A DNA stretch of 64,000 nucleotides from Solirubrobacterales bacterium. Its GTDB lineage: Bacteria; Actinomycetota; Thermoleophilia; Solirubrobacterales; Solirubrobacteraceae. Under the pieces are notes generated by a model that saw only the letters and a list, made by a program, of their open reading frames with translations, was not told the DNA's origin and searched no databases. The stretch lies in assembly GCA_027306855.1 (NCBI GenBank), contig DAHUYZ010000005.1, forward strand, positions 1 through 64,000. The letters run 5' to 3'. A program made the position numbers and the translations under genes. Positions 32,788-33,040 of this stretch are shown here, one piece after another (positions within the stretch are counted from its first letter, which is position 1; each line of letters begins with the position of its first letter).

Positions 32788-32818
32788 AAAAAGAAAGCCC
32801 CGGGTATCACCCCGGGGC
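32788..32818 (-). terminator. Rho-independent terminator, minus strand
   Basis: GCCCCGGGGTGATACCCGGGGC followed by TTTCTTTTT on the minus strand. Confidence 0.75.
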
Positions 32819-32916
32819 GTGGTCGAGACCGGAGCCGTCCAAGCGGGCCGACCTCGTGCCCTCACAATACGCGATCCGGCAACCGAGTCAAAATCGCCGC
32901 CGCAGGCGCTGGTGCT

Positions 32917-32956
32917 TGGTAGCAATCTTGGTAGCAATTTGAGCGGATCTGAGCTG
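32917..32956. repeat. Copy B of about 40-bp repeat with tandem cttggtagcaat 12-mers
   Basis: tggtagcaatcttggtagcaatttgagcggatctgagctg. Confidence 0.75.
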
Positions 32957-33019
32957 ACCCGAGAGCACGCAACCCCAATGAATCCGGGGCCTCTCGCCTC
33001 ACGTTCTCGCCAGAGACGA

Positions 33020-33040
33020 GTTCGAGCCCAGTATCGCCCA
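33020..33040. repeat. attR core (21 bp)
   Basis: gttcgagcccagtatcgccca identical to 11193-11213. Confidence 0.85.

What the first reader, a model, noticed from the sequence alone, without database searches (positions are those of the whole stretch)
32788..33040. Native recombinase C-terminus, stop codon and terminator stranded at the far end of the element
In the integrated state the recombinase ends in antisense tRNA codons (...NNMVGDTGLEPVTSALSRRRSPS*). If the two 21-bp cores are joined as in an excised circle, the same reading frame continues without a frameshift into MVGDTGLELVSGENVRREAPDSLGLRALGSAQIRSNCYQDCYQAPAPAAAILTRLPDRVL* (stop at 32864-32862). About 44 nt later comes a minus-strand rho-independent terminator (32818-32788) that otherwise has no evident minus-strand gene to serve. 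This predicts that integration and excision switch the recombinase between two C-termini and separate its mRNA from its own terminator, a possible built-in control of integrase activity or direction.
Basis: partly seen in the sequence, partly recalled or inferred. Interest (0 to 1): 0.8.

Follow-up and report, generated by a model that had tools for sequence, protein, structure and literature searches.

The report
Integration swaps a recombinase's tail

Summary
The idea holds; the place does not. The sequence features at 32788-33040 are real: 21-bp repeat, in-frame join, minus-strand terminator. But 33020-33040 belongs to another island. Its arm-type direct repeats (translated as 'NCYQDCYQ') and half-core match tyrosine-integrase sites at tRNA-Val in relatives. 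The enzyme here (LSR1) is a large serine recombinase. Its geometry, fixed from related elements, places the true far end at 24233-24259. There the zinc-domain motif GGTTGGAG matches the element half of attL 8/8, 5 bp further out than in the tRNA. Joining there is in frame and adds 117 residues (24257->23904, minus) that include a HARE-HTH-like winged helix. The joined protein aligns end to end (64%) with an unbroken homologue, P0049. Independently, four attR sites in two relatives strand another conserved tail (dN/dS 0.32-0.40), which three unbroken homologues carry in frame. Of 120 close homologues, 111 end in antisense-tRNA 'GLEP' peptides. So integration replaces this recombinase's native C-terminus. 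What that does (self-limiting integration, directionality, or nothing) is inferred, not shown. A Dehalococcoides ssrA-island recombinase (PMC3146451) is the nearest precedent, where the idea was raised but no tail was identified.

The parts
11141..11216 (+). tRNA-Val(GAC), the integration target; its last three bases CCA (11214-11216) come from the element
   Evidence: ARAGORN; native tRNA-Val copies in relatives lack CCA after the discriminator
11192..11235 (+). attL of LSR1: GGTTCGAG (tRNA T-loop, B-type spacing) ... CCA centre ... CTCCAACC (element half)
   Evidence: alignment of 20 attL sites
11152..12984 (-). LSR1 gene as it stands: large serine recombinase body plus antisense-tRNA tail; element-encoded part ends at 11214
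   Evidence: Pfam Resolvase, Recombinase, Zn_ribbon_recom; tail GDTGLEPVTSALSRRRSPS
13010..13903 (-). replication-relaxation protein, conserved neighbour of LSR1-type recombinases
   Evidence: PF13814 133.5 bits; homologues beside the recombinase in relatives
14133..16292 (-). TrwB/TraG-like ATPase (mobilization or transfer)
   Evidence: PF10412, PF02534
24233..24282 (+). true attR of LSR1: P-left GGTTGGAGAGCCCCTTGGCAAGAG-CCA, then the former tRNA flank CTGTTCTGTGCATTGTGCGAACC
   Evidence: motif 8/8 identical to the element half of attL at the 24-nt P spacing; spacing control
23904..24257 (-). stranded native C-terminal tail of LSR1 (117 aa + stop): ALAKGLSNPAG...RFIRLARGRYALAAAS*
   Evidence: in-frame join, 64% end-to-end match to P0049; homologous tails in G399b and G067
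23916..24107 (-). HARE-HTH-like winged-helix domain within the stranded tail
   Evidence: PF05066 28.0 bits, cut-off 25.9; AlphaFold2 winged helix, block-mean pLDDT 72-90 for residues 51-117
24258..24332 (-). remnant of a second recombinase (LSR2) C-terminus, RVHDQHKIIPTYRIPHAVRTMHRTV, now fused in frame to the stranded LSR1 tail
   Evidence: match to P0122
31771..31932 (+). older att relic: arm repeats (31771-31791) and partial half-core (31918-31932), preceded by GGTTCGC at P spacing; possibly the LSR2 attR
   Evidence: same layout as the G018 island with a tyrosine integrase
32788..32818 (-). minus-strand terminator-like hairpin; owner unknown, not linked to LSR1

Best explanation
Window 11214-24259 (13.0 kb) is an integrated, probably mobilizable element whose large serine recombinase (LSR1) recognises the T-loop/acceptor end of tRNA genes. 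Its attP lies inside its own reading frame: the body (resolvase, recombinase, zinc-ribbon and coiled-coil parts) is encoded on one side of the crossover and a 117-residue tail with a HARE-HTH-like winged helix on the other. In the circle the two are one open frame. Integration cuts the gene at the crossover. The body stays at attL, continues in the same frame into the antisense strand of the tRNA and ends in a junk 'GLEP' peptide, while the native tail and stop codon are stranded at attR (24257->23904). The element also supplies CCA for the tRNA, and in some relatives a terminator-like hairpin. Shown by sequence: the swap, the frame, the conserved tails, unbroken homologues. Inferred: the full-length form is the integration-competent one and the tRNA-tailed form is impaired or altered, making integration self-limiting until excision restores the gene.
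For: Joined protein matches unbroken homologue P0049 end to end, 64% over 692 columns, including 44% over the 87-aa tail core. The P-left motif is identical to the P-right motif (8/8) and shifted 5 bp outward relative to the tRNA, the canonical attP/attB difference of serine integrases (PMC3783163). Independently, conserved tails (LMEPVARQARRR type) lie stranded on the recombinase strand at three distances in G016 and one in G053b; two sit beside a displaced tRNA terminator. The joins read in frame, and the same tail type is fused in P0063, P0100 and P0109. Pairwise dN/dS is 0.32-0.40 for three of the stranded tails. The 24-nt spacing is enriched: 7 exact hits against about 1 at other spacings and 0 on the opposite strand. 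Asn at codon 10, from GAACC, occurs in 9/9 tails found without using the motif. 111 of 120 close homologues end in antisense-tRNA GLEP peptides.
Against: No circular DNA or activity was observed. No held genome carries a LSR1 relative closer than 58%, so the window's attR rests on the unbroken homologue and geometry, not on an empty site. The HARE-HTH call is weak in P0049, G399b and G067 (15-19 bits, below cut-off), although the tails align with each other. Tail types differ among relatives (winged helix, 38-aa helical, and several of 21-32 aa), so the tail's role may be minor. Foldseek matches for the tail are winged helices but with E > 0.04.
Confidence: 0.82

Rival explanations
1. One reading: the native tail is 33019->32862, with its terminator at 32818-32788, and the element spans 11193-33040.
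For: 21-bp identity and an in-frame open join. P0122, another serine recombinase, ends in a similar sequence, 55% over 55 aa.
Against: Arm repeats and the TGAGC..ATCTgAGC box match tyrosine-integrase islands at tRNA-Val. Motif spacing at 33020 is B-type, not P-type. Verified attR sites of relatives share only 3-6 bp with their tRNA. Among listed LSR1-type homologues none carries this tail. The 24259 join gives a 64% end-to-end homologue instead.
Confidence: 0.04
2. The swap is real but neutral: attP overlaps the 3' end of the gene and the tail is dispensable baggage, so both protein forms work alike.
For: Tail types and lengths vary (21 to 117 aa). The body already holds all recognised recombinase domains. 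The antisense-tRNA tails are arbitrary sequence. McMurdie et al. offered a trivial variable-C-terminus reading for DsiB (PMC3146451).
Against: No stop just before the crossover in the family members checked (one frameshifted exception, G074) or the 120 homologues. Homologous 109-117 aa winged-helix-like tails in P0049, the window, G399b and G067. Pairwise dN/dS 0.32-0.40 for the short tails, on few sites.
Confidence: 0.3
3. The swap sets direction: the tail favours attP x attB, or acts as a built-in directionality domain, and the tRNA-tailed form favours or permits excision once a partner is present.
For: Artificial C-terminal fusions of directionality factors to serine integrases reverse their preference (PMC5737554), so a C-terminal domain can act this way.
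Against: No sequence link between these tails and known directionality factors was tested or found. A fused excision factor would be present in the circle, the wrong state.
Confidence: 0.2
4. After integration the stranded tail is expressed as its own DNA-binding protein (ORF 23904-24392, fused to the LSR2 remnant), for example as a repressor.
For: The ORF is open for 162 codons and contains the winged helix.
Against: No promoter-like site was found nearby. The upstream part is a remnant of another recombinase, so this arrangement is particular to the window.
Confidence: 0.07

Closest known systems
DsiB serine recombinase of Dehalococcoides ssrA genomic islands (McMurdie et al. 2011, PMC3146451)
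   Same: A serine recombinase gene that always overlaps attL at its 3' end, with no stop inside the island, running antisense into the target RNA gene. The authors suggested it might be fully functional only in the circle.
   Different: CcrB-like enzyme at tmRNA only, 20-bp repeats, insertion in the T-loop, partner DsiA. No native tail was identified there. Here many tRNA kinds are hit, the tails are identified, and the crossover is at the acceptor end.
Phage-type large serine integrases (A118, phiC31, Bxb1)
   Same: Domain order, and attP half-sites with the zinc-domain motif 5 bp further out than in attB (PMC3783163).
   Different: From general knowledge, their attP lies outside the integrase reading frame, so integration does not change the protein.
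Integration-dependent immunity of mycobacteriophage BPs (PMC4557955)
   Same: attP lies inside a regulatory gene, so integration changes a C-terminus and the function of the product.
   Different: The gene cut is the repressor, and the change removes a degradation tag; here the recombinase cuts its own gene and receives a host-encoded tail.
SSV-type archaeal integrases (from general knowledge)
   Same: Integration at a tRNA gene breaks the integrase's own gene.
   Different: Tyrosine recombinases split within the catalytic gene; here the body stays whole and only the tail is exchanged.

Membership tests
Large serine recombinase | Resolvase N-terminal domain, Recombinase domain and zinc ribbon in one long protein | tested here: met
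   PF00239, PF07508, PF13408 above cut-offs
Large serine recombinase | Coiled-coil insertion in the C-terminal part | tested here: met
   Two long helices 366-413 and 419-460 in the P0049 model, high confidence
Large serine recombinase | attP half-site with zinc-domain motif 5 bp further from the centre than in attB | tested here: met
   GGTT at 24 nt in P-left against 19 nt in the tRNA; rule from PMC3783163
Tyrosine integrase island (for the recombinase at 11152-12984) | Phage_integrase catalytic domain | tested here: not met
   No such Pfam match to the window recombinase
Tyrosine integrase island (for the 33020 site) | Arm-type repeats beside a tRNA-end core, with a tyrosine integrase at the partner attL | tested here: met
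   Layout shared with G018 contig 104, which has PF00589 108 bits at attL; the window's own tyrosine integrase is missing
DsiB-type ssrA island | Recombinase ORF overlaps attL with no stop inside the element | tested here: met
DsiB-type ssrA island | CcrB-like enzyme with a small partner serine recombinase and about 20-bp repeat of the target end | tested here: not met
   True attR shares only CCA with the tRNA; no second resolvase-domain ORF was noticed beside it, though not searched exhaustively
HARE-HTH (PF05066) for the tail | Score above the curated cut-off | tested here: inconclusive
   28.0 against 25.9 for the window tail; 17.4, 18.6 and 15.5 for P0049, G399b and G067, below cut-off

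The most novel reading that the evidence does not exclude
A widespread family of tRNA-targeting serine recombinases carries a built-in state switch: attP bisects the recombinase gene, so only the circular element makes the tailed, integration-competent enzyme, while the integrated element makes a form tailed with antisense host tRNA. The universally conserved T-loop keeps the frame open in whatever tRNA is hit.
Probability: 0.45. Interest if true: 0.87.

Novelty: new variant of a known kind. Interest (0 to 1): 0.74.

Why it matters
Serine integrases are widely used genome-writing tools, and in nature their one-way action is controlled by separate factors. Here the recombination product itself would rewrite the enzyme, a simple one-shot logic. 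The family is large (4,350 homologues found), hits many tRNA kinds through the conserved T-loop, and its tail-bearing and tail-swapped forms can be compared directly in a plasmid assay. It also explains the frequent antisense-tRNA 'GLEP' endings of recombinases in databases, and shows how to find the true ends of such islands, which share almost no repeat with their target.

Tried and rejected
Searching relatives for a long repeat of the tRNA end to find attR: none except by chance. Comparing empty tRNA loci of the same genus: downstream flanks not conserved. First motif scan built from the right half-sites: no clear winner. The arm pattern TTGCTACCA-N3-TTGCTACCA in 151 genomes: only the window. 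Plasmid and viral collections: no close relatives. Region-limited protein search for the 38-aa tail: only P0063 itself. Class- and order-wide genome searches for closer LSR1 relatives: none. Considered 31918 as the LSR1 attR: right spacing, but the motif GGTTCGC fits LSR2 better and its 24-aa tail resembles nothing. G399a has a matching winged-helix ORF, but its junction was not resolved, so it is not counted.

Full report
Observation. The features described at 32788-33040 are in the sequence. Two facts were missed. The last 15 bp of the repeat recur at 31918-31932, and a 45-bp stretch with paired 9-mers (TTGCTACCA, 12-nt period) occurs both at 31771-31815 and at 32917-32961. The recombinase is a large serine recombinase, not a tyrosine integrase.

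What the 33020 site is. In relatives, several islands at tRNA-Val end in the same layout: paired arm words, a TGAGC..ATCTgAGC..GAGAGC box, about 80 nt, then a half-core GTTCGAGCCCAGTATCGCCCA and a native flank. In two of them (G018 contig 104, G056) similar arm words also lie at the attL side. In G018 contig 104 a tyrosine integrase (PF00589, 108 bits) sits right beside that attL. Paired arm sites on both sides of a tRNA-end core are the hallmark of tyrosine integrases (general knowledge). A database recombinase, P0122, does end in a similar peptide. It belongs to another serine recombinase type, and its junction has tRNA-like (B-type) spacing, so it is best read as a recombinase inserted next to such a half-core.

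The recombinase family. LSR1-type relatives in the same order sit at the 3' ends of tRNA-Ala, Ser, Leu, Glu, Pro, Lys, Arg, Asp and tmRNA genes. They point at the RNA gene, and the frame runs open into its antisense strand in one register, giving G-[LFI]-E-P from the T-loop; one relative (G074) is frameshifted further upstream, and one distant one (G015) enters in another register. Among the best 120 of 4,350 homologues, 111 end this way, 4 end in other conserved tails and 5 in unclassified sequence. The attL sites align as GGTT[CA]RA (T-loop), 15 nt, discriminator, then an element half that usually starts CCA and carries an inverted copy of the GGTT motif. Native tRNA and tmRNA genes seen here lack the encoded CCA, so the element supplies it, and in some relatives also a terminator-like hairpin.

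Finding the true far ends. Three homologues (P0063, P0100, P0109) continue, after the point where the others enter the tRNA, into a shared 38-44 aa tail with LMEPVARQARRR character. The same tail is stranded, on the recombinase strand, in G016 (three sites, about 15.8, 17.7 and 70 kb from their attL) and G053 (18.7 kb); a profile search of all frames ranks exactly these first. In two cases (G016 contig 7, G053b) the sequence next to the junction is a displaced rho-independent terminator, as expected for the original flank of the tRNA. Rejoining gives continuous frames. For three of the stranded tails pairwise dN/dS is 0.32-0.40, on few sites. These junctions fix the geometry: GGTT lies 24 nt from the centre in the element half and 19 nt in the tRNA half. 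That 5-bp shift is the known attP/attB difference of serine integrases (PMC3783163).

The window. Applying this geometry, the best site in the window is 24233-24259, GGTTGGAGAGCCCCTTGGCAAGAGCCA. Its first eight bases equal the element half of attL. The int-strand sequence beyond it, 24257->23904, is open for 117 codons in frame and encodes a HARE-HTH-like winged helix (28.0 bits, cut-off 25.9; winged-helix model; weak winged-helix matches in PDB including Rok and RNA polymerase delta). Homologue P0049, 69% identical in the body, carries the same tail unbroken; the joined window protein aligns with it from end to end at 64%. Homologous tails of 114 and 109 aa lie at the predicted far ends of G399b and G067. 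As a control, exact motif-plus-core hits at offset 24 number 7, against about 1 at other offsets and 0 on the opposite strand. The element is thus 11214-24259, 13.0 kb. To its right lie older remnants: a second recombinase's last 25 codons (24258-24332, P0122-like), an att relic at 31771-31932, and a tyrosine-type remnant 31933-33040.

Mechanism. Shown from sequence: attP lies inside the reading frame; integration leaves the body at attL with a host-encoded antisense-tRNA tail, and strands the native tail and stop codon. Because the distance from T-loop to acceptor end is constant, the frame stays open in the same register in whatever tRNA is hit (inference from the alignments). Inferred: the tail matters for the integration reaction, so the integrated copy is impaired and integration is self-limiting. 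A directionality role and neutrality are live rivals; the varied tail types argue for caution.

Known work. McMurdie et al. (PMC3146451) noted that the serine recombinase DsiB of Dehalococcoides ssrA islands always overlaps attL with no stop inside the island and suggested it may be fully functional only in the circle; they found no tail. Mycobacteriophage BPs uses attP inside its repressor gene (PMC4557955). Artificial integrase-directionality-factor fusions show that a C-terminal domain can set direction (PMC5737554). The literature searches found no report of an identified native tail of this kind, but only open-licence papers could be searched.

Noticed in passing
29697-30677 (+) and 30933-31508 (-): AbiTii-like protein (PF18864, 82.8 bits) and a Fic/DOC protein with a small ORF beside it, likely defence or toxin-antitoxin cargo in the older remnant right of the LSR1 element.
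   Followed up: no
19929-23687 (-): Long ORF (1252 aa) inside the LSR1 element with at least 12 diverged ~120-nt repeats (about 40 aa each), probably a secreted repeat protein.
   Followed up: no
32018-32714 (+): Small ORF pair (DUF5678-like from memory, and a weak aspartyl-protease match) next to the tyrosine-type attR; an 83% copy sits beside the same kind of site on the window genome's contig C21 (L005).
   Followed up: partly
L004 (own genome contig C258, 674-1056): A second LSR1-type recombinase C-terminus at tRNA-Ala(CGC) in the same genome, again running antisense into the tRNA.
   Followed up: partly
attL sites of relatives: The elements supply CCA, and in several cases a terminator-like hairpin, to tRNA genes that natively lack encoded CCA, so integration rebuilds the tRNA 3' end.
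   Followed up: partly
P0066: A recombinase ORF that reads through antisense tRNA-Ser into LexA, one 861-aa open frame; a case where integration may create a chimeric product.
   Followed up: no
P0014, P0015, P0025, P0102, P0112: Homologues whose tails after the crossover are neither tRNA antisense nor a known native tail; possibly unusual insertion sites.
   Followed up: no
G117 contig C206 (L011): 6-kb contig with the same recombinase stretch inverted at both ends, possibly an assembly artefact or inverted duplication.
   Followed up: no
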